Shown: piece by piece, positions 10,472-44,104 of the stretch
How the letters are laid out: every line of letters starts with the position of its first letter
Numbering within the stretch: the first letter of the stretch is position 1
Source of the DNA: Chamaelirium japonicum
Lineage: Eukaryota; Streptophyta; Magnoliopsida; Liliales; Melanthiaceae
Direction: 5' to 3'
NCBI GenBank assembly: GCA_947650365.1
Contig: OX393549.1
Location: 25,555,851-25,619,850, forward strand
Length of the DNA: 64,000 nt
The notes under the pieces: model-generated
The model's input: the letters and a program-made list of their open reading frames with translations, nothing else
What the model was told of the DNA's origin: nothing
Database searches by the model: none
Made by a program: the position numbers and the translations under genes

Positions 10472-10476
10472 ACCTC

Positions 10477-12104
10477 TGTATGAGCAAATATTTGATTTTT
10501 ACTCAAGTACAAATTTCAAAGACTCGCTTCGAGGGAGCGGAGTACAAAATGTATATCAGGAGATTGCGGGGAAATCCGTCTTTGATCCTTTGATACTCGA
10601 TTTCGAAGTACAAAGATTACAACAAGTGAGGAAATGAAAAGAGAAGAGCGTTGCGGTGCTTGATCCTTCCGGGCTTCGCGCGTGATCGGCTAGGGGCTTT
10701 GCTTTACTCTTCTTCTCCTAGAATCTTCACTTGTTCTTCGCTTGTTCTTCGACTTGCTTGGACTTGATTCTTCAATTTTCCATCTTCTTCTTCGATCTTT
10801 GGTCTTCGATTTTTCTTTGGTTTGCTTCGATCTTCGATTCTTCTTCTCTGGGATTTCTTGGAGCTTTGAAGTATCTTCAGTCGGGAGCTTTGTGGGATCT
10901 TGTTGCTATGGCCAAAGATCCTTTCTTCTCTTCTTGTCCCTCCTTTTATAAGGGTCGAAGTAGTTATTGTAGAGAATAACTACTTCGGGTGGTTGAAGCA
11001 ACCTCCTGGTGGTTTCTATAACTTCCCTTGGATGGTTAGAGAAACTTCCAGGTGGTTTACATAACTTCCTTGATGGTTAGGATCATATTCGAGTGGTTTT
11101 GTAACTTCCACTGGTAGCTTAATCCTTTTGAGCTTGAGTGAACCGGTCTGATTAAAACGACTTGTGGTTCGGGTCTTAAATCCGAATCGACTTACTGCGA
11201 CTTAGATTTTAACCAAGTTAACTCTTGATCCGGTCCTTTCTGACTTGGTAGGTTCAATGAGTTTGTCGAAATCTAGCGTAAGCTTACTTGTAGGAGCTTA
11301 AGCTTGATTATTCTTCGGCCTTGTATATCGGCTTGTCGAAGGATGCTCATCTCTAAGTATCATTCTATTGACTTAGATATAGCCTTTGGACGATAGGGAT
11401 ATAGTACTTTCCTTACTCTCAGACTTGGTCAAATTTCAGAGCGTAAGGAAGCAAGAAAAATTTCCTTGGTCATCAAGGAAATAAAGTATAAGGAAGCAAA
11501 ATTTCCCTAGTCATCAGGGAAATAAAGTCTTCCAGACTTAGCCAAATTTCTGAGTGTAGGCAAAAATTTCCCTGGTCATCAGGGAAATAAAGTGTAAGGA
11601 AACAAAAATTTCCCTGGTCATCAGGGAAATAAAGTCTTCCAGACTTAGCCAAATTTTTGAGTGTAAAACAAAATTTCCTTGGTCATCGGGGAAATAAAGT
11701 CTTCCAGACTTAGTCAAATTTCTGAGTGTAGAGAAAAATTTCCCTGGTCATCAGGGAAATAAAGTATAAGGAAGCAAAATTTCCCTGGTCATCAGGGAAA
11801 TAAAGTCTTCCAGACTTAGCCAAATTTTTGAGTGTAAAGCAAAATTTCCCTGGTCATCAGGGAAATAAAGTCTTCCAGACTTAGCCAAATTTCTGAGTGC
11901 AGAGAAAAATTTCCCTGGTCATCAGGGAAATGAAGTATAAGAAAGCAAAATTTCCCTGGTCATCAGGGAAATAAAGTCTTCCAGACTTAGCCAAATTTCA
12001 GAATGTAAGGAAGCAAAATTTCCCTGATCATCAGGGAAATAAAGTCTTCCAGACTTAGCCAAATTTCTGATTCTCTAGCTTTAGGCAATATTTCAATGTC
12101 TACA
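10477..12104 (-). repeat. 3' LTR of the Ty3 element
   Basis: A 1628-bp direct repeat of 24520-26251, with ends TGTATGAG and GTCTACA. Its right third (about 11460-12040) is an array of a palindrome, TTTCCCTGGTCATCAGGGAA, in about 11 copies, alternating with a spacer carrying GTCTTCCAGACTTAGCC. Confidence 0.93.
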
Positions 12105-12121
12105 AATTGCCCCCTCAAGGA
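12105..12121 (-). other. Polypurine tract of the Ty3 element
   Basis: Read on the minus strand, CCTTGAGGGGGCAATT abuts the 3' LTR. A purine-rich run at this spot primes plus-strand DNA synthesis in LTR elements. Its position agrees with the minus orientation of gag-pol. Confidence 0.6.
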
Positions 12122-12189
12122 TTGACGTTTCAAGCGAAAAACGAAAAAGGTCAATCTTTGATTTTTTTTTTTTTTTTTTTTTTAGGACG

Positions 12190-12250
12190 GCGGTACAGCT
12201 CGTCCTTTGACCCCCCTTTGTCTATAAAAAGGGGTCTCCTCTCCTTTTCT
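12190..12250 (+). promoter_or_regulatory. Candidate promoter for the antisense gene in the Ty3 element
   Basis: GGTACAGCTCGTCCTTTGAC is followed by TATAAAAA at 12223-12230, on the plus strand and 860 bp before the antisense start codon. The GGTACAGCTCGTCCTTTGAC block recurs at about 12910-12935 before TACATAAAACGGG, giving a second, weaker copy. Between them lie several poly-T runs and GGCCGGCCAGG repeats. The promoter role is inferred. Confidence 0.45.
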
Positions 12251-12857
12251 AACTTATTGTTCGGTATTTCTTGGAGCTAGGTCTAAAAACCCTACTTCAA
12301 GGTATTTTGCAAAAACCATCTCGCAAACTTGATTCCTTCGGCAAGTAGACGATCAAATCATCCAAGGTAATCATAATCTTGATCTTTTCCTTTGCTTTGC
12401 TTTCTCTTTGATCTTCGTTTCTCCTTTTGCAATGATCTTTGTGGGCCCCCTTTTTTTAAAAAAAAAAAAACGAAACCCTAGTTCAAGGTTTTGCAAGAAT
12501 GATCTTTGATCTCCTCTTTTACCTTTTTGAATCATATGATATTTGATTCTTGGATCATCTTTCATGCATCTAGATGATCTTTGACTACCCATCTACTTGA
12601 ATCGACTAGGTTTTTTTAGAAACCCTAGTTCAAGATTTCGTAAGAACGATTTTTTTTTTTTTTTTGCTCTCATTTTTACCTTTTTTTTTTTTTTTTTTAT
12701 GCTCTTGTATATCTCGTGCATGATGTTAGATAATCTTTGACTATTCATCTACCCGAATTGACCAGGTTTGACCAGGTCATTTTTTTTTTTTTTTTTTTTT
12801 TTTTGCCAGGGCCGGCCAGGTTTGACCAGGGCCGGCCAGGCAATCCCCAGGGTCGGC

Positions 12858-12894
<37 letters not shown>

Positions 12895-13088
12895 GACAGC
12901 GGTACTTATGACGGTACAGCTCGTCCTTTGACTCCCCTTTTACATAAAACGGGATTCTTTTCTTTATTTTGCTTGTTCCTTGATCTTCTTTCCTTCCTTT
13001 GCAATGATCTTCGATCTTTGATGTTTTTTCGATGGTCAACTTTTGCAAAATGTATTCTAACTTTTAACTCAATCTTCTGTGTGTAGGT

Positions 13089-16000
13089 ATGAGTACTTCA
13101 GAGAAATACATTGCTATGCCAGAAGATGGTTGGTTAGAAGAAGAAGAAGAACGAGGGGTCACTTATCTTGTTTTTCCTCATGCGAAAGTCAAGCAGCATG
13201 GGGCAACTCTGAAAAAGAATGGCCCAAACTCTTTGACTACCTTGAGAATCGTTGAGCACGAGAGTTATGACAACGATAGTCATAGAGCTGAGAAGAGCGC
13301 TGGACCCATTAGCCGTTTCGAAAAGGCTCCGATTCTTTCTTTTCCGTATCATCATACAACGGCTGAAATGGTACCCATTCCTCAAATTGCTTCAAAAATT
13401 GCTTCAAGATTCACTCGATGGGGGGACGAAATACGAGGTCGTGGCGATGTTCAGTATCTCAATGGTTTCGGTGAATGGATGCACGAAGTCTTCGAAGCCT
13501 TGCGCGGCCGAGAGGCTACTAGAAACATATCTGTTATGCTGGAACCTGCTTGTTATGAATATTGTAGGCCTGATGGAATGTATAGAGCTTTGTGTGAGCT
13601 CTGGTGTCCGGAAACGAATACATTCCTCACTTCTATTGGGGAAATAGGGATTTCCTTGTCGGAGATCTATCAGGTATATTCATATTTGAAATTGAATTTG
13701 AGCGACATTCATACGTGTGACTTACTTTCTTCATTTTTCTTCTTCCAGATATCAGGTTGTCTCATGAGTGGAGAATATTACCAAGAGAGAGTCCCTAATC
13801 TCTTTGAGCTTTTCGACTGTGTATATACTCCTTCAGCACTTTCCTATCTTTTCAAAGCTTTTGCAATTATTGCTGCATCTTGCCGTAGTGACCGAGTTCG
13901 GCATTGTGACTGGATTGATTTTTGGTTTCGTGGGTACCCTCGAGCTGTTAATTCTCAGAAAACCGATATCATAAGGAAAGCCAAAGCTAAACTTGACCAA
14001 TCAGGAGATATTGATAGGCCGATCAGTCTTATGCCTCCAGAGAAACGACCTTCTGGCTCGAAACCCAGTCCTTACGTTTTGCTAGGATTGTCAGCCAATA
14101 GCACTCTGGGGAAGATTGTCTATAGGTCTGCGGCGATTGTTCTTTTTCTTTGTAAGTTCGCCCTGCCTTGGAGTGGTGACTTGATTCGTCCAGGTACTTT
14201 CATCCCAGCTGTAAATATGGTGAAAGGTACCGAATACAATTTGGCTGTTCCCATATTATGCTTACTCTACAATGGTCTGACGCGGACTTACAGCAGCCTG
14301 TCTACAAGCCCCAAGTTCAGTGGTGAGCTAGGTCGGGCTAGTTCCTTTTGTCCCCTTCACTACTTATATGGGTGGATTGGACTTCACTTTCCAAGAGGGA
14401 TATTTGCCAAGAATCTTCGGCAAAAGAGATTTCCTTTCCTCATAGCAGTATCTGGTGCTCTGGCAGCTTATCAGCCTTGGGAAGGGTCAGCTCAAGACGC
14501 TAGAATGATTCTTCGTACTATGGGAGAAGCTGATTTTCGTTTTGCTCATGAAGCTTGGAAGCCGATCCCTGATAGAGAAAAGGGCATTTTTTATGATAAT
14601 GGCAAGATGCCATACCCCATCTTCCTCTCAATGTTGAGCTGTAAACCAGGGTTTCTTGTATTCCGTCGGGGTAATACGGTACAGATAGCACAGTATAGCC
14701 CTCATCGGTTTTCTCGTCAATAAGGGTTTATGCAAACGATACCTGGAACACCTATCCCTTTTAAGGAAGAAGTGTCTCCAAAGTTGGCGTTTGGCTATTG
14801 GTTAGCATTCAGTGAGAGACATACTGGAGTTAGTTTCGCTCTTCCGTTACAAGGAGTAAACCTCAAAGACTGCGTATCTTCAGCATATTCAAGTTTAGTA
14901 AGAGGGAGAATCAAGAATCAATTGGCTATGTATCCTTCTTCTATGCTGAAATCGAGTAAGAAAAGCTCGTTTGAGTTTAAAAAAGATGAAGGCATGAGAG
15001 ATAGGACGGAGATTCGATTCCAAAAGAACTCTCGTCCTGGTTCTTCACGAGCGAGCCATCGCCGAACAGAATCTGACAAAGAAGTTGCGTCTTCTTGTTC
15101 TGGCACTTCTGAGCGTCCTGTTCCTCCAGCCGTGCCTTCTGAGCGACAGGGAGATGAAAGAGGTACCAGGAAGAGGGCGAGAACATCAGAGGATAGTTCT
15201 TCTATTCGGGAGATCATTAATCCTCTTGCGATGTCCCCTACTGGATCGAGGCATCAAATATTGGAGACTGCTCTTGTTGCAGCTTCCCCTGCTGAGATGG
15301 CAACTCAAGGTGTTGATATTACTACTTCAGGTATGAGTTGTCCCCTTTGTAATCCTTTGAATATTAATGATTGCTGTATGTTTTACCCTATCGCTTTGTT
15401 GTATAGGATATTCTGCTGGCGGCCTTTGTATTCCTAATGATGATCTAACTGAAGTGATTGGCAAAGGATTATTGGAGGATGATGCCTTTGAAGCGACATA
15501 CCCATTTTTCCAGGATTTGCAAGATGAGGGTGTTGGAAAAAATCACGAGGCATCAGTAACCGTTGAGATGACCAGAAAAGAAATAGTGGGTGACTCTATG
15601 TTTGAGGAGCTTGCAGGTCCTTCCACAACACCAGTGGATCATGAAGTTCAATCTTCTTTGGTATGCCAGAAAGCTCAGGCAGAAGTCCCTATTTTTAAGA
15701 AGCCGAGATCGATTGCTGGGATGGGTCCAACTATGTCTGAGGCAACTGGATTTGTGCATGGTTCAGTTGAGGAGATGGACCGTTCTTTGGCTGCTATTAT
15801 GCTGGTTCCCTGCAGGTCATTCATAGACTGCTCACTGAAGCCTTTTCATCAAGCGGGATTCTCAGCACTAGAGAAGTGGTGGGCCAGTATGGGTGTTATC
15901 TTTTGTGATCGTCTTCGAAAATTCGGAGTGAACGATTCTGTCTTTGTTGAAAAGATCGAATCGCTTCTTCAAGACAGCCATACTTATCATAACCGACGTT

Positions 16001-16383
16001 CATCGTTTGTCAAGGAAAAGGCTGTTGTTAGTCCGGACCATATAGCGAAGATAGAAGAGACTTTGAAGTCGTTCTCCCAGTTCTTAGATGAGGGTGATTC
16101 TGTACTGTCAACAGCAAAGTCAGAGGAAACTTCTGCTCGTTTAGCATTGGAGGAGGCTAAAGCGTTGGTTATTTCTTGCGAAAAGCGTTTGGCTGCAGCT
16201 TCTGATGCCGTGACTTTACAGAATGATTACCTCAACTCCCTGAAGGCACAAAAGACTGAAAAAGAGAAAGAACTGACCGAACTCAAGGGTCAAGAGGAAG
16301 CTGGGGCATCTTCTGTCTTAGCTATTGATGGCGCACGAGAGGAACTTATGCAACGTCTTCGTGACTTAAGCTCGATATATTGA
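13089..16383 (+). CDS. Antisense plant-mobile-domain (PMD) gene carried by the Ty3 element
   Basis: Plus-strand coding blocks lie between the integrase end and the 3' LTR, opposite to gag-pol. The first block (from ATG 13089) resembles the plant mobile domain of the MAIN/MAIL family: an N-terminal linker, a helical core around GFGEWMHEVFEALRG, then a tryptophan-containing segment (CELWCPETNTFLTSIGEIGI) and a following MSGEYYQERVPNLFELF stretch. The distal part has a long heptad-like region rich in Lys, Glu and Ala (about 16030-16350), probably a coiled coil. GT-AG intron-like gaps separate the blocks, as expected of a captured host gene. It may be broken about once. Extra ORFs, some antisense, are known in Tat-lineage elements; PMD domains are also known from mobile elements. 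A role in silencing evasion or nuclear targeting would be speculation. Confidence 0.65.
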
Positions 16384-16677
16384 TTATTAAGCTTTGTACT
16401 TTTTCCTTTTAGACTTCATTAAGATTTATGCAATATGAATTCTCCTGGTATTTCCTTCTTGATTGTTCTACTGAATATGGGTTATTATTTTTTTTGTTTG
16501 GACTGATCCTTAGGGGTTTCCTCAGGCTGCCTACGTACCCTTTTTCAAGGGATCAAGTCGCACGTAGTTCCCTTGGATTTTTTTTTTTTTTTTGCATCAC
16601 CCTGATCGATATGCATCCCAACTAGGTTGGCACCCACATCTATCAGGACTATCATTTGCAATATAGAGTGATTTTCT
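16384..16677. other. Spacer between convergent ORFs of the Ty3 element
   Basis: About 290 bp between the end of the antisense gene and the end of gag-pol. It contains a poly-T run near 16570-16585. The two transcripts converge here, so shared 3' ends or overlapping transcripts are likely. Confidence 0.5.
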
Positions 16678-19600
16678 TCATGCATAATATCGCTTGAGGA
16701 ACTTGCCGTTGATTGGGCCAAGTTGTCCTCCTTCTGGTGTCATAAGTAGATATGCTCCATTAGTATAGACTTCTCTGACGACATGAGGGCCATCCCACTT
16801 AGCATCAAATTTTTTTCCTGCTCTGTGAGATAAGATGATGGGACGTCGCACTGCTAGGACAAAGTCCCCTTCTTGGAAAGAGCGAGGCTTAACTTTTTTA
16901 TTGAACGCTCGAGAAATACGAGCTTGATAGCATTCAAGTCGTTGCTGAGCCTCAAGTCTTTTCTCGTCTAGAGCTTCCAATTCCACAAGTCGGAGTTGAG
17001 CATTTTCATCAGTAGTAAGACCTTCTTGGATGGCAATTCTTAGAGAAGGAATTTGAAGTTCTAGAGGTAGAATCGCCTCTACTCCATACACAAGGGAATA
17101 TGGTGTTGCTTGAGTCGGAGTGCGAAACGATGTTCGATAAGCCCATAGAGCCTCGTGCATACGCTCGTGCCAGTCTCTTTTAGATTTAGAAACCACCTTC
17201 TCCAAGAGTTTGCATAAGGTCTTATTGAAAGCTTCTGCTAAACCATTGGCGGGAGCATTATACATTGTAGAACATCTCTGTTTGATTTTATACTTAGCAC
17301 AGAAATTATCCATAGCAGCGTTTTTGAATTGCTTGCCATTATCAGTAACGATGCAACGAGGAATTCCATATCGGAAGATGATATCATTTTGAATAAAATT
17401 CATGACTGAATTTCGGTTCACTTCTCTGAGAGGGACTGCCTCTGCCCATTTGGAAAAGTAGTCTGTCGCCGCTAGAATATAAAGGTGTTGTTTAGAAGAT
17501 TTGGGTAATGGACCGACTATGTCAAGTCCCCAAGAGTCAAATGGCCATGAAGCGACTGTAGGATGAAGTGGTTCTGGCGGCTGACGAATATAATCACCAT
17601 GGATTTGGCATGCATGACACTTTTTAGAGAAGTTTAAGCAATCTTTAACCATGGTAGGCCAGTAGTATCCCATTCTTTTGATACGAAAGTGAAGTTTCGG
17701 CCCTGACTGATGAGTACCACATATACCTGAATGTGACTCCTGGAGAGCAAACTTGATGTCTTCTCCGGTCAAGCATCTCATAAGTGTACCATCATAGCTT
17801 CGACGATATAATTCGCCATTGAAATGCAAGAACTTGGGGGCTCGTCTTCTTACCTCAGTTCTGTGTTTAACTTCTTTAGGGAGTTTACCACTCTCGAGGT
17901 AATCAATAAGGGGTTGTCTCCAGTCTTGTTCTTCTATGACATAGGAATGATCTTCATTTTTCTGACCTATAGCCTGATTGAATTGATCTTCCAGAGTGAG
18001 TATCCACCTTCGACAAACCGGAATATTTAATTGGTCAAGGTCTTGAATAGCAAGCGATGCTGCTAGATTCGCCAATGCATCAGCTTGTTGATTCGAACTT
18101 CTTGGTACATGTTGAATGCTTGCTGCTTCGATGCTGTTGAATAAAGTAAGAGCATATTCATGATAAGACTTGAGGTCTTCCTTATTGACTTCATAATCTC
18201 CCAAGACTTGATGAATGATGAGTTTGGAGTCACCATAAATTCGTAGCCCTTGAAGTTTCATGTCCCGAGCGAGTTCAAGACCAATAATTAATGCCTGGTA
18301 TTCGGCTTTGTTGTTTGAACAAGGCTCTGCCAATGAGAAAGAGTATGGGAGAGTTTCGGAGTTTGGCGAAACGAAAACAATCCCTGCCCCCGCAGCTTGT
18401 CGTTTTGCAGCTCCATCAAAGAACATTTCCCAAGAAGGGATTATGTTTACAAAGAAGACCTCCTCATCTGGTAATTCCTCAGTTAACTCCCAATCCGCAG
18501 GAATAGAGTGATGAGCCAAGAAATCTGCTAAGGCTTGCCCTTTGACTGCTTTCTGGGGGGTGAAGATGATATCAAATTCTGACAGGAGTAGAGTCCATTT
18601 TGCTAGTCTTCCTGATAGAACAGGTCTTGACATAATATATTTGAGGGGATCTGCTTTAGATACAAGTTTAATAGTATGAGCCAACATATAATGCCTTAAC
18701 TTTTTTGTGGCAAAAATAAGGGCTAAGCATATCTTTTCTATAGGAGCATACTGTAATTCTGCCCCCACAAGAGTACGACTCAAATAGTAACAAGCCACTT
18801 CCTTTCCGAATTCATTTTCTTGTGCAAGCAATGCCCCCAGAGAGTGTTCTTGTGCGCTTATGTAAAGTATCAAGGATATCCCTGGAATGGGTGCTGTCAG
18901 AACTGGTGGTTTCAAGAGATAGTCCTTAATATCTTGGAAAGCCTTTTGACATGCTTCATCCCATTTGAAAATAGCATCATTTTTCATGAGCTGGTGAAAA
19001 GGGTGACATCTCCCGGAGAGGTTGGCGATAAATCGCCTGATATAAGCCAAGTGACCTTGTAAGCTTCTAAGGTCATGAAGTGACTTAGGGTCGGGCATGT
19101 TGAGAATAGCATCAATTTTAGATTGGTCTATCTCAATGCCTCGATGCCTTACGATGAAACCGAGGAATTTTCCGGATGTAACTCCAAAGGCGCATTTAAG
19201 CGGATTCATTCGTAGTTGATACCTTCTTAATCTATCAAAGATAGCACGCAAATCATTCAGATGTGAAGACCTTTGTTTGGACTTCACGACTAGATCATCA
19301 ACATAGCATTCTACATTTTGGTGAAGAATGTCATCAAAAATCCGCTGCATGGCTCGTTGGTAGGTAGCTCCTGCGTTCTTCAGTCCAAAAGGCATTACTT
19401 TATAACAAAAGATGCCCTTAGGTGTGCGGAAAGCTATGAGTTCTTCATCCTTCGGTGCCATTCGGATTTGATTGTATCCTGAAGAGCCATCCATGAAGGA
19501 TAGAGCTTCATATCCCATTGTAGCATCCACCATAAGTTCGGTGATTGGTAAAGAAAAATCGTCTTTGGGGCATGCATTATTCAAGTCTCTGAAGTCGACA

Positions 19601-22600
19601 CATACTCTGATTTGCCCATTCTTCTTCTTCACGGGTACAACACTAGAGATCCAAGTAGGATACTTAACTTCTCTAATGAACCCTGCTTCAATCAGTTTGT
19701 TCACTTTGGCTTCAATTTGTGGAATAAGTTCTGGGCGGTATCTTCTTTGGCCTTGCTTGATAGGATTAGCACCACGTTTCACGGCAAGCTGATGAACAGC
19801 AATTTTGGGGTCTAAACCTGGCATTTCTTTATAAGACCAAGCGAAGACGTCCTTGTATTCTTGGAGAAGCTTGACATACTCGACTTCTTCGTTCGTTGTT
19901 AGGAGAGAACTGACGAATGTCGGTCGTGGTTCTTCTTCAGTGCCAAGATTAATTTCTTTTAAATCATCCACAGTGGACTGCCCCCCTTCTTCAAGGACTG
20001 GAGGTGCATCAGCTAAGTCACTGTCCGAAGAAGTAGACGAGCAATCGATGTACTCAGTAGAAATATGATTGACAGATACAACGATTTTCTTTTTCGACCC
20101 AGAGGAAGAAGATGCGTTCAAACATGCTGAATTGGTAGTAGAGTCAGAAGTAGCATCGATACTGATTGTCAAAGGAGCATCCTGAAGAGGCGGAACTCGA
20201 TGCCAGGTGAGACTGTGTCGCTGAAAAGACCCGCTGTGACCATAGGAGATTTTGGCATGTCGAGAATGAGCAAACCTGGGTGGGCGGGAGGGCTTTGCGA
20301 AACCAAGTTCAAGTCTGTCAAAGACTGATTGTCGTGGATGATTATTTTTGACGATTTCAGATCTGATTCTTGGTTTCTTTATCCTCTCAAAGACTGAAGT
20401 TTGATTTGGCTTTAACTGGTGATGTACATCGGGCATCTCATATTGTGCCATGAGTATTTCTTTCTTCTTTGCACGTCGTCGCCTTCTTTTTGCTGACTTA
20501 GACAATGTCTGAAAGTCTTCATCTGTGTTACTGAGATACTTCTTTTCTACTGTGTCATCATCTGCATCATATAAAGCTTTTGTATAGTCTTCTTCATCTT
20601 GGGCTTCAATGAAGTTTGCGGACATAGTTTCTTTTGCGCTTGTTTTGAGCACAATGGGGATTTGCTTGGCTCCAATGCCAGGTCGAGTTTGTGGTATATT
20701 TTCTCCAGCCAAGAAGAGCCGCTCTTGGGTTTTAGTTAAACCGTAAGGGGCTGTTCGTGGTGGTAATGTACCTAAACGTTCAACATCTTTTGGAGTGAAT
20801 CCAGCTTTGCTCAGGAGACTTGATGCTTCGCTTCCCCATGTTCCTTCTGGTTTGAATGTAGAGTTGCCCTTACTTGAGTTAGTAGCTGATGTTAGGCTGT
20901 GCAGCGGCAATACCAAGTCTTCTTTTAAAGTGACCAAATTAGCATCTGTAAAAGAGGTGGATGGCTTTGTATGCATAGGAGTGAATGGTGGCTGTCCTAT
21001 CTTTCGGCCTCTCTGTGGTACGAAACTTAACACCGGAGCAGATTCAGCCATTTTTGTAGGATATTTATTAACCTTCTGTTTTCCTTTTATACTCTTCATT
21101 TGAACTGGCACCGCTTGCTGGTTTGATTTCTTCGGATAAAGGACATAAAAATCGAATTTCCCTGAAGGTTGGCCAAGTAAACCTACTTCTGGGTCACCGT
21201 TCTCATATCTTTGTTTGAGAGATTGTTGTGATGACTTCTTGTTTTTCCTTCGCCGATCTTCATCATCTTCGTATTCCAATTCCAGAGCCTCTTCAAGGCA
21301 TTCGTCACATTCGCAATCACCAAACATCGTATGACGTTGGGTTGGAGGATTTGGAGAGACCCTGACTGATGGAGTCACTTCTTTTGCCTCTGTTTCTTGG
21401 AGAGAATTTGTAGCTTTGTTGGGTGACGTTTCCTTGATAACGGAGCCTTTACTGTGGTAGAATTTGGCGTCGGCGAGATAAGCTTCTGCTTCATTAAATG
21501 GTCTATCATCTGCTAGAACGCACTTCTCAATGCCCCCTTGGTGATATTTGAAACATTGATGTAATGTTGAAGGCATTATTTTATTCATATGTAGCCAAGG
21601 TCTTCCAAGTAAGAGTCGATAAGAGGTTTGACAGTCTATGACATGGAACAGAGTCATAGTGTCAAGTTCTCCGATTGACAACTTCAAGCGTATGATGCCG
21701 ACAGCTGACTGTGCCCCTTGGTTGAAGCCTTGAATGACCAATTTGCTTCTGGAAAGTTGATCACTTTTTATGCCCAAGTCCTTCATAGTTTGACTAGGCA
21801 TGATATTGACAGCCGATCCGCCATCTATCAATATGCGAGTTACTGGTTTTTCATTGATATAACCAGAAACATAAAGAGGTCGGTTGTGCAACCGTGCTCC
21901 CAGCTGCAAATCTTCGTCAGAGAAGGAGATAGTCATATCACATTGGACTGATTTTTCTTCATTAGTCTTCACTTGATGACTTTCTGGGTCAGTTAATGCC
22001 GCAGCCATAGCGTGGCGTGCATCTTCCGAAAGATGGAAAGCCTCTATAAGTGGCAAATGTAACATAGCTTCATCATAAGTAGCTGCGAGGTTTCCTTCGA
22101 TCGGCTCAACAGGAGGTATATTATCTGACATTTCTGGAGGCTGAAGAGTTAGTTCCTCATTTGATTCTTTCTCATGGACTTCTGCCGTATAGCAAGTTGA
22201 CGAAGAGGATAAATCATTTTCGAAGAAATCTTCAGGAATGAAGTCTTTTAGTGTAAGAGGTCGCCGGACGGCTTGATGTAGTATTTCTTCATCATTGACT
22301 GTAAGAACTTTAGGCATACTTTTCTTTTGGCCTTTCTTCTTTAAAGACTTCTTGACGTAAGTCTTTTCTCTCTTTCCCTTAGACTTATCAGAGATTATGG
22401 GAGAGACTTTACGGAGAGGGGCTCGAGGGGTTCTTTTATTTCGAACCACCAAGGTCCATCCGTCCTTCTGTTCCGAATTCTCTTTTTCAAGGGAATAGTC
22501 ATTCTCTTTTGGAGGCAAGGGGGCTTCTTTCGTTGGTAGACTTTCACAACTCTTGATCTGATTTTTGCGCATCTGGATTCTGAGTTCTGGTGCCCCCAAG

Positions 22601-24405
22601 CTTGCAACCTGAGTAACATGCATATGCCTCCTTACTGAAGAATGTTGCTTGTTGAGGAGGGCTGAAGTTTTTATCTTGAAAACTAGCCTCTTCCTTGCTG
22701 CTGGAATTTGAACTGGTGGGAGAGAACCGAAAACAATGGATGTCATGTTAGTTGCGACTATCTCATCTGAAGGCAACTCAATCTTTCCTTGACGTGCCAA
22801 CGACATGATTTTCTCTTTGAACACGAAACATTTTTCGATAGGGTGACTCACGACCCTATGATATTTGCAATATAAAGGATCATCAACTTTATTTGCTTCT
22901 TCTGGTCTCTTGGATAAAGGTATTTCAATCATCTTCTCCTCCAAGAGTTGGTCAAACATGGCTGAAACTTCTGAGTCTGGAAAGGGATACTTCTTCGCTT
23001 GGAGCTCTTCTAAGGTCATCCGGGGTGGCCTTTGCTGTGAAGACTCAGGAGTAGGCTTGGTGTTGTCTGGTCTATCTTTCATCTTCAAGGGTTTTGAAGA
23101 AGAAGCGATGTTTACAACATTTGTTTGTTTTGCTTTTGGGGCTGACATTTTTTCTTTGCCATCTGCCTTAGACTTCGAAAAGTCCCTTGGCTTGGAATCT
23201 CCGTGAGTAGCCAAGCTAAGATCCATATCGTGAGCTCGTGTGGCCAATTCTTCAAAGGAGCTGGGTTTGATTCCCTGGAGAATATAGAGTAATCCCCAAT
23301 GCATTCCTTGAATGCACATCTCTATTGCTGAAGACTCGGAGAGTCGATCCCGTGAGTTGAGAGCAAGGTTTCTCCATCGATCGATATAGTCTATGACTTT
23401 CTCATCTTTGCGTTGCTTGACAGCAGTAAGTTCCACCATACTCACCACACGCCGAGTGCTGTAGAACCGAGTGAGAAACTCCCGTTCTAATTGTTCCCAG
23501 CTATCGATAGACCCCGGAGTGAGGTCTACATACCATTCGAATGCGGTCCCTTTGATAGACCGAACGAATTGTTTGACCATTTCATCATCATAAGTGCCAG
23601 CATTGTTACAAGTTTCTATGAAGTGGGCAATATGTTGCTTTGGATTGCCTTTTCCTTCGAATTGCTGGAACTTGGGTGGGTTGTATCCTGCCGGAAAGTG
23701 TAAGTCTTGGATACGTTGGGAGTAAGGCTTGGTGTACCCTACTGTGGACTTAGAAAATCCGTCTCCCCTTGCTTGGATCATACTTGCGACCATAGACTGT
23801 AATTGTTCAACAGTCATAGGTGAAGATGTAGGCATGATTGCACCTATCTCTGGAGAAGTGATCATCTGCGGCATCAAAGTCCGAGTAGTCGTGGGGAGGG
23901 CCTTGGTTGTTGCAGGAACCAAAGCCTCTTCCTTAGTATCCATTTTTTTGAGAAGACTGTTGATTTGACGATCCTTTTCTGCCATTGTCTGGACCATCTG
24001 AGCCATGAGTTGGCTCATTTGTCGTACTTCCTCCTCAAGTTTAGTCATTGTGGAGTTAGTAGAATTTGGGCGAACTTCCTGGCGTGCCTCGAGAGTCTCA
24101 ACGTCGTCTTCCGAGACATAGTCATGATGAACAACAGCGTCCACATGACCATCTGGATTGAAGATTACTTCATCTCTCACCCCGAATTCCTTAGTGCATA
24201 GGATATCTCCCTCGGTTTTGACTTCAGGTAGAACTGAAGAAGTAGTCTTCTTGCGCCTAGTGTAGACACGTAGTGCAGGGGCCTCCTCGGATGCCGAAAC
24301 ATTAGCATTCGTGGTGACATTCTCCTGGTTGCCTTGTTGGAGTGTATTTGACTCAACAAAAGGCATAGTGACGGGAACAACCATAGCATCACCGATACCG
24401 ACCAT
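16678..24405 (-). CDS. Ty3-type Gag-Pol polyprotein (Tat lineage)
   Basis: A single open frame of about 2575 residues from the Met at 24405; the frame stays open further upstream into the LTR, so that Met was chosen because it follows the primer site. Order of domains: Gag (about 23050-23700, with WEQLEREFLTRFY), protease (about 21750-21900, with LIDGGSAVN), reverse transcriptase (about 19150-19700, YVDD near 19295), RNase H, a second archaeal-type RNase H (about 18050-18430, starting FFDGAAK) and integrase (about 16950-17680, with a zinc-finger CHACQIH and a D,D-E core). There is no chromodomain. A long, lysine- and glutamate-rich linker separates Gag from RT. It looks whole. Such proteins assemble virus-like particles in the cytoplasm and integrate cDNA in the nucleus. 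Confidence 0.93.
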   Translation of the reverse strand: MVGIGDAMVVPVTMPFVESNTLQQGNQENVTTNANVSASEEAPALRVYTRRKKTTSSVLPEVKTEGDILCTKEFGVRDEVIFNPDGHVDAVVHHDYVSEDDVETLEARQEVRPNSTNSTMTKLEEEVRQMSQLMAQMVQTMAEKDRQINSLLKKMDTKEEALVPATTKALPTTTRTLMPQMITSPEIGAIMPTSSPMTVEQLQSMVASMIQARGDGFSKSTVGYTKPYSQRIQDLHFPAGYNPPKFQQFEGKGNPKQHIAHFIETCNNAGTYDDEMVKQFVRSIKGTAFEWYVDLTPGSIDSWEQLEREFLTRFYSTRRVVSMVELTAVKQRKDEKVIDYIDRWRNLALNSRDRLSESSAIEMCIQGMHWGLLYILQGIKPSSFEELATRAHDMDLSLATHGDSKPRDFSKSKADGKEKMSAPKAKQTNVVNIASSSKPLKMKDRPDNTKPTPESSQQRPPRMTLEELQAKKYPFPDSEVSAMFDQLLEEKMIEIPLSKRPEEANKVDDPLYCKYHRVVSHPIEKCFVFKEKIMSLARQGKIELPSDEIVATNMTSIVFGSLPPVQIPAARKRLVFKIKTSALLNKQHSSVRRHMHVTQVASLGAPELRIQMRKNQIKSCESLPTKEAPLPPKENDYSLEKENSEQKDGWTLVVRNKRTPRAPLRKVSPIISDKSKGKREKTYVKKSLKKKGQKKSMPKVLTVNDEEILHQAVRRPLTLKDFIPEDFFENDLSSSSTCYTAEVHEKESNEELTLQPPEMSDNIPPVEPIEGNLAATYDEAMLHLPLIEAFHLSEDARHAMAAALTDPESHQVKTNEEKSVQCDMTISFSDEDLQLGARLHNRPLYVSGYINEKPVTRILIDGGSAVNIMPSQTMKDLGIKSDQLSRSKLVIQGFNQGAQSAVGIIRLKLSIGELDTMTLFHVIDCQTSYRLLLGRPWLHMNKIMPSTLHQCFKYHQGGIEKCVLADDRPFNEAEAYLADAKFYHSKGSVIKETSPNKATNSLQETEAKEVTPSVRVSPNPPTQRHTMFGDCECDECLEEALELEYEDDEDRRRKNKKSSQQSLKQRYENGDPEVGLLGQPSGKFDFYVLYPKKSNQQAVPVQMKSIKGKQKVNKYPTKMAESAPVLSFVPQRGRKIGQPPFTPMHTKPSTSFTDANLVTLKEDLVLPLHSLTSATNSSKGNSTFKPEGTWGSEASSLLSKAGFTPKDVERLGTLPPRTAPYGLTKTQERLFLAGENIPQTRPGIGAKQIPIVLKTSAKETMSANFIEAQDEEDYTKALYDADDDTVEKKYLSNTDEDFQTLSKSAKRRRRRAKKKEILMAQYEMPDVHHQLKPNQTSVFERIKKPRIRSEIVKNNHPRQSVFDRLELGFAKPSRPPRFAHSRHAKISYGHSGSFQRHSLTWHRVPPLQDAPLTISIDATSDSTTNSACLNASSSSGSKKKIVVSVNHISTEYIDCSSTSSDSDLADAPPVLEEGGQSTVDDLKEINLGTEEEPRPTFVSSLLTTNEEVEYVKLLQEYKDVFAWSYKEMPGLDPKIAVHQLAVKRGANPIKQGQRRYRPELIPQIEAKVNKLIEAGFIREVKYPTWISSVVPVKKKNGQIRVCVDFRDLNNACPKDDFSLPITELMVDATMGYEALSFMDGSSGYNQIRMAPKDEELIAFRTPKGIFCYKVMPFGLKNAGATYQRAMQRIFDDILHQNVECYVDDLVVKSKQRSSHLNDLRAIFDRLRRYQLRMNPLKCAFGVTSGKFLGFIVRHRGIEIDQSKIDAILNMPDPKSLHDLRSLQGHLAYIRRFIANLSGRCHPFHQLMKNDAIFKWDEACQKAFQDIKDYLLKPPVLTAPIPGISLILYISAQEHSLGALLAQENEFGKEVACYYLSRTLVGAELQYAPIEKICLALIFATKKLRHYMLAHTIKLVSKADPLKYIMSRPVLSGRLAKWTLLLSEFDIIFTPQKAVKGQALADFLAHHSIPADWELTEELPDEEVFFVNIIPSWEMFFDGAAKRQAAGAGIVFVSPNSETLPYSFSLAEPCSNNKAEYQALIIGLELARDMKLQGLRIYGDSKLIIHQVLGDYEVNKEDLKSYHEYALTLFNSIEAASIQHVPRSSNQQADALANLAASLAIQDLDQLNIPVCRRWILTLEDQFNQAIGQKNEDHSYVIEEQDWRQPLIDYLESGKLPKEVKHRTEVRRRAPKFLHFNGELYRRSYDGTLMRCLTGEDIKFALQESHSGICGTHQSGPKLHFRIKRMGYYWPTMVKDCLNFSKKCHACQIHGDYIRQPPEPLHPTVASWPFDSWGLDIVGPLPKSSKQHLYILAATDYFSKWAEAVPLREVNRNSVMNFIQNDIIFRYGIPRCIVTDNGKQFKNAAMDNFCAKYKIKQRCSTMYNAPANGLAEAFNKTLCKLLEKVVSKSKRDWHERMHEALWAYRTSFRTPTQATPYSLVYGVEAILPLELQIPSLRIAIQEGLTTDENAQLRLVELEALDEKRLEAQQRLECYQARISRAFNKKVKPRSFQEGDFVLAVRRPIILSHRAGKKFDAKWDGPHVVREVYTNGAYLLMTPEGGQLGPINGKFLKRYYA

Positions 24406-24487
24406 GTTGAAAATTTGAATTAGAAGAATCCTTCGTAAGGAAGAAAACTTCGAGTATGAGAACCAACGAAATGGAGGGATGAAAGGA

Positions 24488-24512
24488 GACGGAGGTCCCA
24501 CCGGGCGTGCCA
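24488..24512 (-). other. Primer binding site region of the Ty3 element
   Basis: On the minus strand TTTTGGCACGCCCGGTGGG follows the 5' LTR by a few bases. It is in the right place and of the right kind for a tRNA-primed start of cDNA synthesis. The priming tRNA was not assigned. Confidence 0.6.
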
Positions 24513-24519
24513 AAATATT

Positions 24520-26251
24520 TGTATGAGCAAATATTTGATTTTTACTCAAGTACAAATTTCAAAGACTCGCTTCGAGGGAGCGGAGTACAAAATGTATATC
24601 AGGAGATTGCGGGGAAATCCGTCTTTGATCCTTTGATACTCGATTTCGAAGTACAAAGATTACAACAAGTGAGGAAATGAAAAGAGAAGAGCGTTGCGGT
24701 GCTTGATCCTTCCGGGCTTCGCGCGTGATCGGCTAGGGGCTTTGCTTTACTCTTCTTCTCCTAGAATCTTCACTTGTTCTTCGCTTGTTCTTCGACTTGC
24801 TTGGACTTGATTCTTCAATTTTCCATCTTCTTCGATCTTTGGTCTTCGATTTTTCTTTGGTTTGCTTCGATCTTCGATTCTTCTTCTCCGGGATTTCTTG
24901 GAGCTTTGAAGTATCTTCAGTCGGGAGCTTTGTGGGATCTTGTTGCTATGGCCAAAGATCCTTTCTTCTCTTCTTGTCCCTCCTTTTATAAGGGTCGAAG
25001 TAGTTATTGTAGAGAATAACTACTTCGGGTGGTTGAAGCAACCTCCTGGTGGTTTCTATAAATTCCCTTGGATGGTTAGAGAAACTTCCAGGTGGTTTAC
25101 ATAACTTCCTTGATGGTTAGGATCATATTCGAGTGGTTTTGTAACTTCCACTGGTAGCTTAATCCTTTTGAGCTTGAGTGAACCGGTCTGATTAAAACGA
25201 CTTGTGGTTCGGGTCTTAAATCCGAATCGACTTACTGCGACTTAGATTTTAACCAAGTTAACTCTTGATCCGGTCCTTTCTGACTTGGTAGGTTCAATGA
25301 GTTTGTCGAAATCTAGCGTAAGCTTACTTGTAGGAGCTTAAGCTTGATTATTCTTCGGCCTTGTATATCGGCTTGTCGAAGGATGCTCATCTCTAAGTAT
25401 CATTCTATTGACTTAGATATAGCCTTTGGACGATAGGGATATAGTACTTTCCTTACTCTCAGACTTGGTCAAATTTCAGAGCGTAAGGAAGCAAGAAAAA
25501 TTTCCTTGGTCATCAAGGAAATAAAGTATAAGGAAGCAAAATTTCCCTAGTCATCAGGGAAATAAAGTCTTCCAGACTTAGCCAAATTTCTGAGTGTAGG
25601 CAAAAATTTCCCTGGTCATCAGGGAAATAAAGTGTAAGGAAACAAAAATTTCCCTGGTCATTAGGGAAATAAAGTCTTCCAGACTTAGCCAAATTTTTGA
25701 GTGTAAAACAAAATTTCCTTGGTCATCGGGGAAATAAAGTCTTCCAGACTTAGTCAAATTTCTGAGTGTAGAGAAAAATTTCCCTGGTCATCAGGGAAAT
25801 AAAGTATAAGGAAGCAAAATTTCCCTGGTCATCAGGGAAATAAAGTCTTCCAGACTTAGCCAAATTTCTGAGTATAGAGAAAAATTTCCCTGATCATCAG
25901 AGAAATAAAGTGTAAGGAAGTAAAAATTTCCCTGGTCATCAGGGAAATAAAGTCTTCCAGACTTAGCCAAATTTTTGAGTGTAAAGCAAAATTTCCCTGG
26001 TCATCAGGGAAATAAAGTCTTCCAGACTTAGCCAAATTTCTGAGTGCAGAGAAAAATTTCCCTGGTCATCAGGGAAATGAAGTATAAGAAAGCAAAATTT
26101 CCCTGGTCATCAGGGAAATAAAGTCTTCCAGACTTAGCCAAATTTCAGAATGTAAGGAAGCAAAATTTCCCTGATCATCAGGGAAATAAAGTCTTCCAGA
26201 CTTAGCCAAATTTCTGATTCTCTAGCTTTAGGCAATATTTCAATGTCTACA
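24520..26251 (-). repeat. 5' LTR of the Ty3 element
   Basis: 1732 bp, almost identical to 10477-12104 but about 104 bp longer. The extra length is two more palindrome units around 25860-25960, so this LTR has about 13 copies against 11. On the minus strand it should carry the gag-pol promoter. Confidence 0.93.
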
Positions 26252-26256
26252 ACCTC

Positions 26257-30622: not shown

Positions 30623-33600
30623 TGTATGCGCAGAAAAAAAAGATTTGGGTCGTCTTTATTGCAAGCACACGGAGATTATAAAGGCCGGGACCCAGGGACT
30701 CGGGGGTGGTGAGCCGGGTGCGACGAATATTTGATCAAGAGATTATGGGAGAGATCCTTTGGAGAGTCCCTTTGATCCGCGTCTCCACGTTACTTCATGC
30801 GAGAGCTCTGAAGGGGTTGCCCAAGACAGAGATCTTTATAGGGGTGAGGGTTTCTTGAGAGGCTAAGAGGTGTTCGCCGTTGATTTTGTCCCTTCCGTGC
30901 TTCGCACTTTCTCAGCTAGGGGGCTTTTGGCTTCGTTCCTCGGTCTTCGTGTCTCCCTCGGCTCTGGCTGGATCTTAGCGTTCTTGATCGTCGGTTTGCA
31001 GCGTCGATCGTGCTTCTGGCGTCGACTTTGGCTTTGCTTTAGCGTGGCTTTGGCTTTTGCTTTGCTTTAGTGCTTGCGCTTGAACGTAGACGGGTAGAGG
31101 CTTGTGATGCTTTAGTTCTTCCAGACTTCGAGTCGCATCGACTAGAACGTGCGGTGCTTTGCTCGTGATCGTCGTAGTTGCTTGGCTTTGGCACTTGCTT
31201 TGCTTTGGCGTGGTCTTTACCGGTGCTTTGCTTTGGCTCCCTAGTTTTGGCTTTGCTTTACTTTGACTTGATCTTCTCCTTGAACGATGACGGCGACGTT
31301 CTCCGATTCTTCTTTATTCTTCCGGCTTCCTCGACGGTTGTGGCATCGCCTTGACTTCTCTTCTTCTCCGGGCTTATTTGGCGTGATCAGAGTTGAAGAC
31401 TTTGTTTTGAAGGCAACGGGTGTAGTGCCGCTTCGGATATCCTTCTCCAAGCTTTCTTCTTCGTGAATGGAGCGGACGTTGTTGAAGACGATGGGGTGAT
31501 ACCACTTCGATCTTCTTCTCCAAGCTTTTGGGCTTCATCGGAGTAGAAGGCTTGATGAAGATGATGAGGTGATACCGCTTTGATCTTCTTCTTCGGGCTT
31601 TTGGGTTTGATTGGAGTCGAAGGCTTGATGAAGACGACGGGGTGATGCCACTTCGATATTCTTCTTCGAGCTTTTGGGCTTGATCGGAGTCGAAGGCTTG
31701 ATGAAGACGATGGGGTGATGCCGCTTCAATCTTCTTCTTCGGTTTTTGCTTCTGGCGTCTTTGGAGTTGATGGCTTCTTCTTCTCCGAGCTCTCTTCTTC
31801 GTGCCTGGAGTCGAAGGGTTGATCTTCTTGTGCAAGGGTCTTCACGTTGATAAGGACTTTCAATGAACTAAGTCGGTCCGAAAGGGATAGGCTTGCCCGA
31901 GCCTCGTGAAGCCTTGGGTCGTTGAAGGTGAGTCTCCTCCTTTGCAGAGCTTTCTTACTTCTGTCTTTGACCTGCGACGGTTGTGGCGTTGGCTTCTTCT
32001 CCGGGCGTATTTGGCGTTATCGGAGTTGAAGGCTTTGTTGAAGATGATGGGTGTAGCACTGCTTCGGGTATCCTTCTCCAAGTTTTCTTCTTCGTGAATG
32101 GAGTGGATGTTGTTGAAGACGAAAAGGTGATGTCACTTTGATCTTCTTCTCTGGGCTTTTGGTCTTGATCGGAGTTGAAGGCTTGATGAAAACAATGGGG
32201 TGATGTTGCTTTGATCTTCATCTCTGTCCTTTGCTTTTGGCATTTTCGGAGTTGAAGGCTTGTTAAAGACAATGGGGTGATACCGCTTCGATCTTCTTTT
32301 CTGGGCTTTTGGGCTTGATCGAAGTCGAAGGCTTGATGAAGATGACGGGGTGATGCCGCTTCGATCTTCTTCTCCAGGCTATTAGGCTTGATCGGAGTCG
32401 AAGGCTTGATGAAGACGACAGGATGATGCCGCTTCGATCTTCTTCTTCGGCCATTACTTCTGGCGTATTCTTCTTCTCCGAGCTTGCTTTTTCGTGCCCG
32501 GAGTCGAAGGGTTGATCTTCTTGTGCAAGGGTCTTCACGTTGATAAGGACTTTCAATGGACTAAACCGGTCCCAAAGGGATAGGCATGCCGGAGCCTCGT
32601 GAAGCCTTGGGTCATTGAAGGCGAGTCTTATCCTTTGCAGAGCTTCCTTACTTCTGCCTTCGACCTGACGACGGTTGTGGCATCGGTTTCTTCTCCGGGC
32701 GTATTTTGCGTAATCAGAGTTGAAGGTTTTGTTGAAGATGATGGGTGTAGCGCTGCTTCGGGTATCCTTCTCCAAGCTTTTTTCTTCGTGAATGGAGCGG
32801 ATATTGTTGAAGACGATAAGGTGATGCCGCTTCGATCTTCTTCTCCGGGATTTTGAGCTTGATCGGAGTTGAAGGCTTGATGAAGACGACGGGGTGATAT
32901 CGCTTTGATCTTCTTCTTCGGTCTTTGCTTCTGGTGTTTTCGAAGTTGAAGGCTTGTTGAAGACGACGGGGTGATGCCACTTTAATCTTCTTCTCAGGGA
33001 TTTTAGGCTTGATCGAAGTCGAAGGCTTGATGAAGATGACGGGGTGATGCCACTTCGATCTTCTTCTCCGGGCTTTTGGGCTTGATTGGAGTCTAAGGCT
33101 CAACGACGGGGTGATACCGCTTTAATTTTCTTCTCCGGCCTTTGCTTCTGGCGTCTTCGGAGTTGAATGCTTCTTCTTCTCTGAGCTTTCTTCTTCGTGC
33201 CCGGAGTCGAAGGGTTGATCTTCTTGTGCAAGGGTCTTCACATTGATGAGGGTTTTCAATGGACTAAGTTGGTCCCAAAGGAATAGGCTTGCCCGAGCCT
33301 CGTTAAGCCTTGGGTTGTTAAAGGCGAGTCACCTCCTTTGCAGAGCTTCCTTGCTTCTGTCTTTGACCTGGAGACAGTTGTAGCGTCGGTTTCTTCTCCG
33401 GGCATATTTGGCGTAATCGGAGTTGAAGGCTTTGTTGAAGACGACGGGTGTAACGTCGCTTCGGGTATCATTCTCCAAACTTTCTTCTTTGTGAATGGAG
33501 CAGAAGTTGTTGAAGACGACAAGGTGATACCACTTCGATCTTTTTCTCCAGGCTTTTGGGCTTGATCGGAGTTGAAGGCTTGATGAAAACGATAGGGTGA

Positions 33601-34538
33601 TGCTGCTTCGATCTTCTTCTCCGGCCTTTGCTTCTGGCGTCTTCGGAGTTGAAGGCTTGTTGAAGACGGCGGGGTGATGCCGCTTCGATCTTCTTCTCTG
33701 GTTTTGCTTCTGGCATCTTCGGAGCTGAAGGCTTCTTCTTTTTCAAGCTTTCTTCTTCGTGCACAGAGTCGAAGGGTTGATCTTGTTATGCAAGGGTCTT
33801 CACGTTGATTAGGACTTTCAATGGGCTAAGCCGATCCCCAAAGGGGTAGGCTTGCTCGAGCCTCATGAAGCCTTGGGTCGTTGAAGGCGAGTCTCTCCCT
33901 TTGTAGAGTTTCCTTGCCTCTTGCTATCTGACCTCTTGAGCCTTCCCCCTCCCCCTCTATTTATAGGTGAAGGGGGGTGGGGAGAAATATGGGAAGGTTC
34001 ATTTAAATCGCTTGATTTTCTCTCTCATAACTATTCAAGATTCATTCCCTCATTTATGGGAGAATAAACCTTCATTTATTTTCCTTTTCTCGCAGAGTAT
34101 TTATGGCCCAATCATTTTGACTTTTTTATTTGAATCTCGCGCATTAAATCAATGGTGATCCGGCTTCGTTTATTGTCCGTTGGATCAAAGGATCGACGTA
34201 GATCTACGCTTATGTAGACGTCTACGCAACCTCCCCCCCGCGTATGACGGTTTTCTTTCCTTTTTCTTCCTTTTCTTTCTTTATTTTCTTTCCTTTTCTT
34301 TTCTTTATTTTCTTTATTTATTTTCTTTTCTTTCTCGATCTTCTTTCTTGGCCGGCCGCTCCTACCTGCAGCACGGTTTTCCAAAAGGGGGGCCGGGTGG
34401 GCCCCACTAGAGGATGGGCCCACCCGACCTCTCTTTTGGTTCAGGTCGGGTCTGGTGGGCCCGGGTTCGTGTCGGGTTTGTCCCCGGGTCGGCGAATACG
34501 GGCAAGGCTTGGGTGCGATCCAATTTTCGATGTCTACA
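30623..34538 (-). mobile_element. Solo LTR (3.9 kb) of a Tat-lineage Ty3 element
   Basis: It starts TGTATGCG and ends GTCTACA, and is flanked by the 5-bp duplication AACAC (30618-30622 and 34539-34543). No internal domain of a retrotransposon lies within. The minus-strand start TGTAGACATCGAAAATTGG is of the same type as the LTR of the neighbouring complete element (TGTAGACATTG), so the family is probably related but the LTR is much longer. It is most simply a recombination product between two LTRs. A TATA-like TATTTATAG lies near 33957. Confidence 0.8.
31370..33770. repeat. 72-75-bp tandem repeats in higher-order blocks inside the solo LTR
   Basis: A unit with GGCTTGATGAAGACGACGGGG, GATGCCGCTTCGATCTTCTTC and a GGGCTTTTGGGCTTGATCGGA part recurs every 72-78 bp. 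A larger marker, CAAGGGTCTTCACGTTGAT, occurs near 31836, 32525, 33227 and 33789, dividing the array into blocks of about 560-700 bp. Because 72 is a multiple of three, minus-strand frames stay open; the ORFs of 64-170 codons here are by-products, not genes. Confidence 0.85.

Positions 34539-43080: not shown

Positions 43081-44104
<1,024 letters not shown>

What the first reader, a model, noticed from the sequence alone, without database searches (positions are those of the whole stretch)
13089..16383. Antisense plant-mobile-domain gene with its own TATA box inside a young Tat-lineage element
The sequence shows a plus-strand gene with intron-like gaps, TATAAAAA upstream and a long coiled-coil-like end, running opposite to gag-pol. 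Extra ORFs in Tat elements and PMD domains in mobile elements are known. The combination here, in an element with nearly identical LTRs, suggests that the antisense gene is maintained. Convergent transcription toward about 16500 could also create double-stranded RNA. A function in evading host silencing is inference only.
Basis: partly seen in the sequence, partly recalled or inferred. Interest (0 to 1): 0.7.

Follow-up and report, generated by a model that had tools for sequence, protein, structure and literature searches.

The report
Conserved antisense gene in plant retrotransposon
A young plant jumping element carries a second gene on its opposite strand, with promoter-like DNA and introns of its own, and comparison of copies suggests that the core of its protein is kept about as strictly as the element's own enzymes; genes of this kind are known, but what they do is not.

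Summary
Window 10477-26251 is a Ty3/gypsy element on the minus strand: LTRs with 3 mismatches in 1,626 aligned sites, a 5-bp target duplication, one gag-pol frame, a second RNase H before integrase (Tat arrangement). Between pol and the 3' LTR, on the plus strand, exons 13089-13673, 13749-15330 and 15407-16383 encode a plant mobile domain (PF10536, 40.7 bits, cut-off 34.9), a variable linker and a coiled-coil-like end.
Corrections: this copy has an in-frame TAA at 14721-14723, so the gene is maintained in the family, not shown here; and the sense RNA must run to the 3' LTR, so any double strand would span the whole gene.
In 21 young copies, variants shared between copies are mostly synonymous in the PMD part (25 S:5 N), singletons are not (25:39), as in pol (48:13 against 57:95). 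The linker and the coiled coil show no such contrast. A 20-nt box ahead of the TATA is duplicated and identical in 43 of 49 blocks.
Antisense PMD ORFs, own promoters, dsRNA and anti-silencing ideas are already in print. New member of a known kind; function inferred: nuclear accessory protein.

The parts
10477..12104 (-). 3' LTR, 1,628 nt, with internal tandem repeats
   Evidence: TSD ACCTC at 10472-10476
12105..12119 (-). Polypurine-tract-like stretch beside the 3' LTR (reads GAGGGGGC on the minus strand)
   Evidence: letters; assignment by position
12192..12230 (+). Distal promoter-like block of the antisense gene: 20-nt box 12192-12211 and TATAAAAA 12223-12230
12367..13086 (+). Predicted leader intron (CAAG^GTAATC ... 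TGTAG), T-rich
   Evidence: letters; TATA-to-donor spacing 140-142 nt where the two pair up; no RNA evidence
12913..12932 (+). Second copy of the 20-nt box, without a TATAAAA
13089..13673 (+). Exon 1, 195 codons, start of the plant mobile domain
13674..13748 (+). Intron 1, 75 nt, GT-AG, in frame and without stop
13749..15330 (+). Exon 2: rest of the PMD (to about 14720), then a fast-changing linker (14724-15329)
14721..14723 (+). In-frame TAA in this copy; not in 19 of 21 young copies compared
15331..15406 (+). Intron 2, 76 nt, GT-AG, frame-shifting
15407..16383 (+). Exon 3, ends in a coiled-coil-like stretch (about 16054-16380) and TGA
16678..24558 (-). gag-pol, one frame of 2,626 aa stop to stop: gag, protease, RT, RNase H, second RNase H, integrase
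24520..26251 (-). 5' LTR, 1,732 nt; TSD ACCTC at 26252-26256

Best explanation
It is the antisense accessory gene (aORF-3R type) of a Tat-clade Ty3/gypsy family. Shown by sequence: a spliced-gene anatomy with a PMD, a linker and a coiled-coil-like end; a promoter-like block with a conserved box; purifying selection on the PMD part among variants that copies share, about as strong as on RT-RNase H-integrase, and much weaker constraint among singletons. Inferred: RNA polymerase II transcribes it from its own TATA promoter beside the 3' LTR, the introns survive each cycle because their splice signals lie on the strand opposite to the genomic RNA, and the protein helps the element that carries it. 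The mechanism I think most likely is a nuclear protein that acts, through the PMD, on the element's own chromatin or on host PMD/PP7L-type complexes and keeps the element transcribed, or helps its DNA integrate. Of that step only the PMD kinship is shown.
For: PMD over the curated cut-off, with the profile hit running straight through the exon 1/2 junction, which supports the splice. Own genome: 150 of 150 scored places match exon 1 (2,791 first-look candidates); 69 of those 150 report an open frame of at least 700 aa with no stop inside. Among 21 young copies 14 have the whole spliced frame open; splice dinucleotides are intact in 21 of 21. A x B subfamily w: exon 1 0.074, PMD part of exon 2 0.135, exon 3 0.213, pol piece 0.123 (pol without L019, L026, L027); the other two plus frames of exon 1, PMD part and exon 3 give 0.96-3.67 for A x B. 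Shared against singleton S:N: PMD 25:5 vs 25:39, p=5.8e-5; pol 48:13 vs 57:95, p=5.8e-8. Leaving out one of two near-identical neighbouring copies: 24:4 vs 26:40, p=3.5e-5; pol 47:10 vs 58:98, p=3.7e-9. Promoter-like block: 20-mer twice in the window, 0 of 100 shuffles; identical in 43 of 49 blocks of 28 copies. Known relative: maize Grande gene23 is reported to be transcribed from its own promoter and its protein to be nuclear (PMC7264820, parts 1-2 of 3 read).
Against: No transcript or protein evidence. The window copy is broken by a stop, and the gene is broken in 4 of 4 B copies and in 3 of 17 A copies, window included. The 20 young copies are the 20 best exon-1 scores after the window, which lowers dN in exon 1 and favours open frames. 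Singletons are not fully neutral either (N/S per site 0.45 in the PMD part, 0.47 in pol). The linker shows no contrast (10:16 vs 12:23, p=0.79); exon 3 is weak for A+B (38:30 vs 21:31, p=0.1) and absent within A (6:6 vs 13:9, p=0.72); the coiled-coil stretch shows none (13:12 vs 9:8, p=1). The minus-strand frame that shares wobble positions also gives low w (0.10-0.41 outside the linker). The PMD is very distant from the full-length PMD frame in this genome (26% over 91 aa, E=0.98), so a shared partner is not shown. The fold prediction failed (mean pLDDT 35).
Confidence: 0.6

Rival explanations
1. A specific form of the accessory role: the protein counters host silencing. The element's PMD competes with host PMD proteins (MAIN/MAIL1 type) or their phosphatase partner PP7L and so lifts repression of the element.
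For: Host PMD proteins act in TE silencing with PP7L and sustain MORC1 expression (passages of PMC7156037 and PMC9899485). An anti-silencing use of captured PMDs was proposed for MULEs (PMC5418596 passage). The PMD part is under selection.
Against: Distant from the host-like PMD here. No interaction or silencing data. A diffusible anti-silencer would also serve broken copies, which should weaken selection on each carrier (reasoning; the same holds in part for pol).
Confidence: 0.25
2. The antisense RNA, not the protein, matters: it pairs with the genomic RNA and feeds siRNA that dampens the element.
For: The sense genomic RNA must cross the whole antisense gene to reach the 3' LTR (reasoning). 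The idea is in print (PMC7264820). PMD genes form phasiRNA loci in tea (PMC10673657 passages).
Against: An RNA function does not predict selection on amino acids, which is what is seen. It may occur as a by-product.
Confidence: 0.1
3. The gene is a passenger, captured once and decaying neutrally.
For: This copy has a stop codon, 7 of 21 young copies have a broken frame, and of 7 older copies tallied 6 have stops in the aligned exons while the seventh has foreign sequence in exon 3.
Against: Low w in the true frame, other plus frames near or above 1 outside the linker, shared variants synonymous while singletons are not.
Confidence: 0.05

Closest known systems
PMD-bearing extra ORFs of Tat/Ogre elements (REXdb survey PMC6317226, passages; Steinbauerova et al. 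2011, seen only as cited)
   Same: PF10536 in an extra ORF of a Tat-clade element; the survey reports PMD in 57% of Ogre elements; second RNase H between RH and INT
   Different: Ogre elements have two ORFs separated by a spacer; here gag-pol is one frame. Lineage by RT tree not tested.
Maize Grande gene23 and Retand TRP28 antisense ORFs (PMC7264820, PMC11963269)
   Same: Antisense gene between pol and 3' LTR; own promoter and nuclear protein reported for gene23
   Different: Retand ORFs carry TRP28 (PF04195); no PF04195 hit here
Host PMD proteins MAIN/MAIL1 (PMC5418596, PMC7156037, passages)
   Same: Plant mobile domain; Gypsy-encoded PMD-A clades are published
   Different: Not compared directly; only 26% over 91 aa, E=0.98, to the full-length PMD frame in this genome
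Single-ORF Ogre-sister elements of orchids (PMC9289625, passages)
   Same: One gag-pol frame, dual RNase H, large LTRs
   Different: Those carry a 2-ODD domain; here it is a PMD

Membership tests
Plant mobile domain (PF10536) | Profile score over the curated cut-off | tested here: met
   38.2 bits unspliced, 40.7 spliced, cut-off 34.9; two stretches, not the whole profile; single exons alone stay below
Tat clade of Ty3/gypsy | Second (archaeal-type) RNase H domain; between RNase H and integrase in Ogre and Retand | tested here: met
   RVT_3 at residues 294-413 of the pol piece, between RT_RNaseH (143-242) and rve (586-681); that this domain is the aRH is inferred
Tat clade of Ty3/gypsy | Place in an RT tree | not tested
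   No named reference RTs were in hand
Ogre lineage | PMD-bearing extra ORF | tested here: met
   share of Ogre elements from PMC6317226
Ogre lineage | Two ORFs separated by a spacer | tested here: not met
   One frame of 2,626 aa
Ogre lineage | PBS complementary to tRNA-Arg | not tested
   A TGG-starting PBS-like stretch lies 7 nt from the inner edge of the 5' LTR; primer not identified
Retand lineage | Antisense ORF with TRP28 (PF04195) | tested here: not met
   No PF04195 hit
[quoted passage not shown]
   Position and PMD-part conservation met; 'most copies' not testable because copies were found through the gene itself
aORF-3R (antisense accessory ORF between pol and 3' LTR) | Transcribed from its own promoter | not testable with these tools
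   Only promoter-like sequence
Anti-silencing protein | Relieves host silencing | not testable with these tools
   No expression data

The most novel reading that the evidence does not exclude
The element encodes its own PMD transcription regulator: the 20-nt box, duplicated and nearly invariant ahead of the antisense TATA, is read by the element's PMD protein or by a host PMD-linked factor, so that the gene switches itself on and at the same time disturbs the host PMD/MORC1 silencing branch. That would make Gypsy-encoded PMDs active opponents of a silencing pathway that uses the same domain.
Probability: 0.12. Interest if true: 0.75.

Novelty: new member of a known kind. Interest (0 to 1): 0.42.

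Why it matters
The function of antisense ORFs in large plant retrotransposons, and of the plant mobile domain, is open in the papers read. Here the PMD part of the protein appears to be selected about as strongly as the replication enzymes, while the linker is not. This argues for a protein function, points to the part to test, and supplies a short conserved DNA box as a candidate binding site.

Tried and rejected
Fold of the window PMD frame 13089-14720 (544 aa, single sequence): mean pLDDT 35.3, pTM 0.23, so no fold search was run. PDB by sequence: best E 0.55, histone deacetylase, taken as chance. A 'different C-terminal type' in one older copy (L035) turned out to be unrelated-looking sequence from about 15890 on. 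Intron 1 as coding: all 5 variable columns in 21 young copies fall in codon position 3, but the profile runs across the junction without it and the PMD frame at L044 aligns there without it, weakly, so I keep it as an intron that can be read through. A genome search with the promoter block did not complete, so whether the box occurs outside this family is unknown. The letters of the 'DOWN' motif of MAIN/MAIL1/PP7L target genes were not in the passages read, so it was not compared with the box.

Rows dropped: L019, L026, L027 from pol counts (pol side deleted or foreign); L033 from exon 3 and from the older-copy w table; L035 from exon-3 counts with older copies; L030 from intron-1 counts. Box blocks were gathered with at most 4 substitutions allowed in 19 letters, so more decayed boxes would be missed and the box's identity is somewhat flattered. 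Two young copies (L020, L021) lie 14.5 kb apart and are nearly identical; the counts were repeated without one of them.

Full report
What is there. The window holds a Ty3/gypsy element on its minus strand, 10477-26251. The two LTRs (10477-12104 and 24520-26251) differ at 3 of 1,626 aligned sites plus a 107-nt and a 3-nt gap, and are flanked by the 5-bp repeat ACCTC. gag-pol is one frame, 24558->16678, 2,626 aa stop to stop. Its pieces hit Retrotrans_gag, an aspartyl protease (below its cut-off), RVT_1, RT_RNaseH, RVT_3 and rve in that order. A second RNase H between RNase H and integrase is the arrangement described for the angiosperm Tat clades Ogre and Retand (PMC6317226, passages). I did not run an RT tree. 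Ogre's usual two-ORF structure is not met, and Retand's TRP28 domain is not found, so I file it as Tat clade only.

The antisense gene. [quoted passage not shown] PF10536 scores 27 bits on exon 1 alone and 11.9 bits on the next piece alone, but 38.2 bits on the unspliced frame and 40.7 bits on the spliced reading, where the best stretch runs through the junction; the cut-off is 34.9. A full-length PMD frame elsewhere in the genome aligns across the same junction without the intron, but the alignment is weak and not significant (E=0.98). The last 109 residues carry a heptad signal (0 of 5000 shuffles). This copy has an in-frame TAA at 14721-14723; 19 of 21 young copies do not.

Copies. In the own genome 150 of 150 scored places match exon 1 out of 2,791 first-look candidates, a lower bound; the window is one of the 150. 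In that table 54 of 150 report an open frame of exactly 789 aa, 69 of 150 report at least 700 aa without a stop inside, and 31 of 150 have a stop inside. I fetched the 20 best-scoring places after the window (the 'young' copies) and 8 of the more diverged ones. Of 21 young copies including the window, 14 have the whole spliced frame open (14 of 17 in subfamily A, 0 of 4 in B) and 21 have intact splice dinucleotides; the RT-RNase H-integrase piece is open in 6 of 18. These copies were chosen for a good exon 1, so 14 against 6 is not a fair comparison. Of the diverged copies, intron 1 keeps GT in 8 of 8 and AG in 6 of 8; intron 2 keeps GT in 8 of 8 and AG in 6 of 7.

Selection. Seventeen copies form subfamily A (window included) and four form B. 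Pooled Nei-Gojobori ratios A x B are 0.074 (exon 1), 0.135 (PMD part of exon 2), 0.734 (linker), 0.213 (exon 3) and 0.123 (pol piece, 15 A and 3 B copies). The other two plus frames give 0.96-3.67 for exon 1, PMD part and exon 3 (A x B); one minus frame, which shares wobble positions, also gives low values (0.10-0.41 outside the linker), and in the linker the true frame (0.73) is no lower than most of the others. Against the diverged copies the PMD part of exon 2 gives 0.19-0.28 (7 copies). Sorting variants by sharing is more telling. In the PMD part shared variants are 25 synonymous to 5 nonsynonymous, singletons 25 to 39 (Fisher p=5.8e-5); leaving out exon 1, which was used for choosing copies, it is 20:5 against 14:30 (p=0.00015). 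Pol gives 48:13 against 57:95 (p=5.8e-8; 18 copies). The linker gives 10:16 against 12:23 (p=0.79). Exon 3 gives 38:30 against 21:31 (p=0.1), within A alone 6:6 against 13:9 (p=0.72); its first two thirds give 25:18 against 12:23 (p=0.043) and the coiled-coil stretch 13:12 against 9:8 (p=1). Without one of two near-identical neighbouring copies the PMD part gives 24:4 against 26:40 (p=3.5e-5) and pol 47:10 against 58:98 (p=3.7e-9). Singletons still lie below one nonsynonymous per synonymous change per site (0.45 PMD, 0.47 pol), so they are weakly constrained or shaped by mutation bias, not shown to be neutral. The simplest reading is that lineages that spread kept the PMD part about as strictly as the replication enzymes, and inserted copies then drift. 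Shared variants are not independent events, and recombination occurs, so the p-values are guides.

Mosaic. Three B copies compared with one A copy differ by 0-1.5% at the start of the gene, by 6-10% between about 15700 and 16500, and by 0.3-4.3% in pol. The end of the gene and the spacer behind it seem to have been exchanged between lineages, as template switching would do (inference).

Promoter. A 20-nt box, GGTACAGCTCGTCCTTTGAC, occurs at 12192 and 12913 in the window and nowhere else in it with up to 3 mismatches; none in 100 shuffles. The first lies just ahead of TATAAAAA; the second has no TATAAAA. In 28 copies 49 such blocks were found, 43 with the identical box; mean pairwise mismatch is 1.2% in the box against 12.7-37% in its neighbours, the latter inflated by length shifts and the former flattered by the search rule. 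TATAAAA is present in 21 of 21 distal, 8 of 9 middle and 0 of 19 proximal blocks. In 2 of 7 diverged copies a TATA at -293 or -295 before the ATG is followed, 140 or 142 nt on, by the donor CAAG^GTAATC at -153 (L037, L041). The distal unit may be a duplicate that took over (inference).

Mechanism. Selection on amino acids argues for a protein that helps its carrier. Introns can survive retrotransposition because the genomic RNA carries them on the wrong strand for splicing (reasoning). A sense genomic RNA must cross the whole antisense gene, so dsRNA is possible over all of it, not only near 16500. What the protein does is open. Host PMD proteins MAIN/MAIL1 work with PP7L in gene regulation and TE silencing and sustain MORC1 (passages of PMC7156037, PMC9899485). 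I rank a nuclear accessory role first, of which opposition to host PMD silencing is one specific form.

What is known. Antisense ORFs between pol and 3' LTR, an own promoter and nuclear protein for Grande gene23, and the dsRNA idea are in PMC7264820 (parts 1-2 of 3 read). Retand elements carry antisense TRP28 ORFs (PMC11963269, parts 1-3 of 5 read). PMD in Gypsy elements is in PMC6317226, PMC5418596 and PMC9289625 (passages). Anti-silencing by TE-borne PMD was proposed for MULEs (PMC5418596 passage). PMD genes as phasiRNA sources are in PMC10673657 (passages). I saw no paper giving a shared-against-singleton test for an antisense PMD gene, or such a promoter box, in the listings of the searches; that is a limited open-access library, and supplements were not read.

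Noticed in passing
window 13674-13748: Intron 1 is 75 nt, in frame and free of stops; in 21 young copies all 5 variable columns are at codon position 3, so a retained, coding form (exitron-like) is possible; with older copies added the pattern is lost among shared variants.
   Followed up: partly
window 15400-16680: Exon 3 and the spacer behind it are up to 6-10% diverged between two subfamilies that differ less on either side: a mosaic.
   Followed up: partly
window 14721-14723: The same stop codon is present in the window copy (subfamily A) and in one B copy: parallel change or exchange.
   Followed up: no
window 10477-12104 and 24520-26251: LTRs contain tandem repeats (start-to-start spacings 65 and 106-107 nt); the two LTRs of this element differ by a 107-nt stretch.
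   Followed up: no
G000 C4:7686103-7687191: The only PF10536 match over the whole profile (1-347, E=2.7e-97) in one frame without a stop among the 126 matches reported (117 of 3,268 candidates scored); looks like a host PMD gene.
   Followed up: partly
window 48115-51495: Plus-strand frames that read by eye like a leucine-rich-repeat receptor kinase (no domain search run).
   Followed up: no
window 44118-46490: A 790-aa frame that reads by eye like a LINE-type ORF1 (recalled resemblance).
   Followed up: no
window 55152-55451 and 62880-63179: Direct repeat, 95% over 300 nt, 7,728 nt apart: possible LTR pair of another element.
   Followed up: no
window 43084-43333 and 43774-44023: Inverted repeat of 250 nt, 90% complementary, 440 nt apart.
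   Followed up: no
window 31344-33671: Block of repeats with spacings of 73 and about 700 nt.
   Followed up: no
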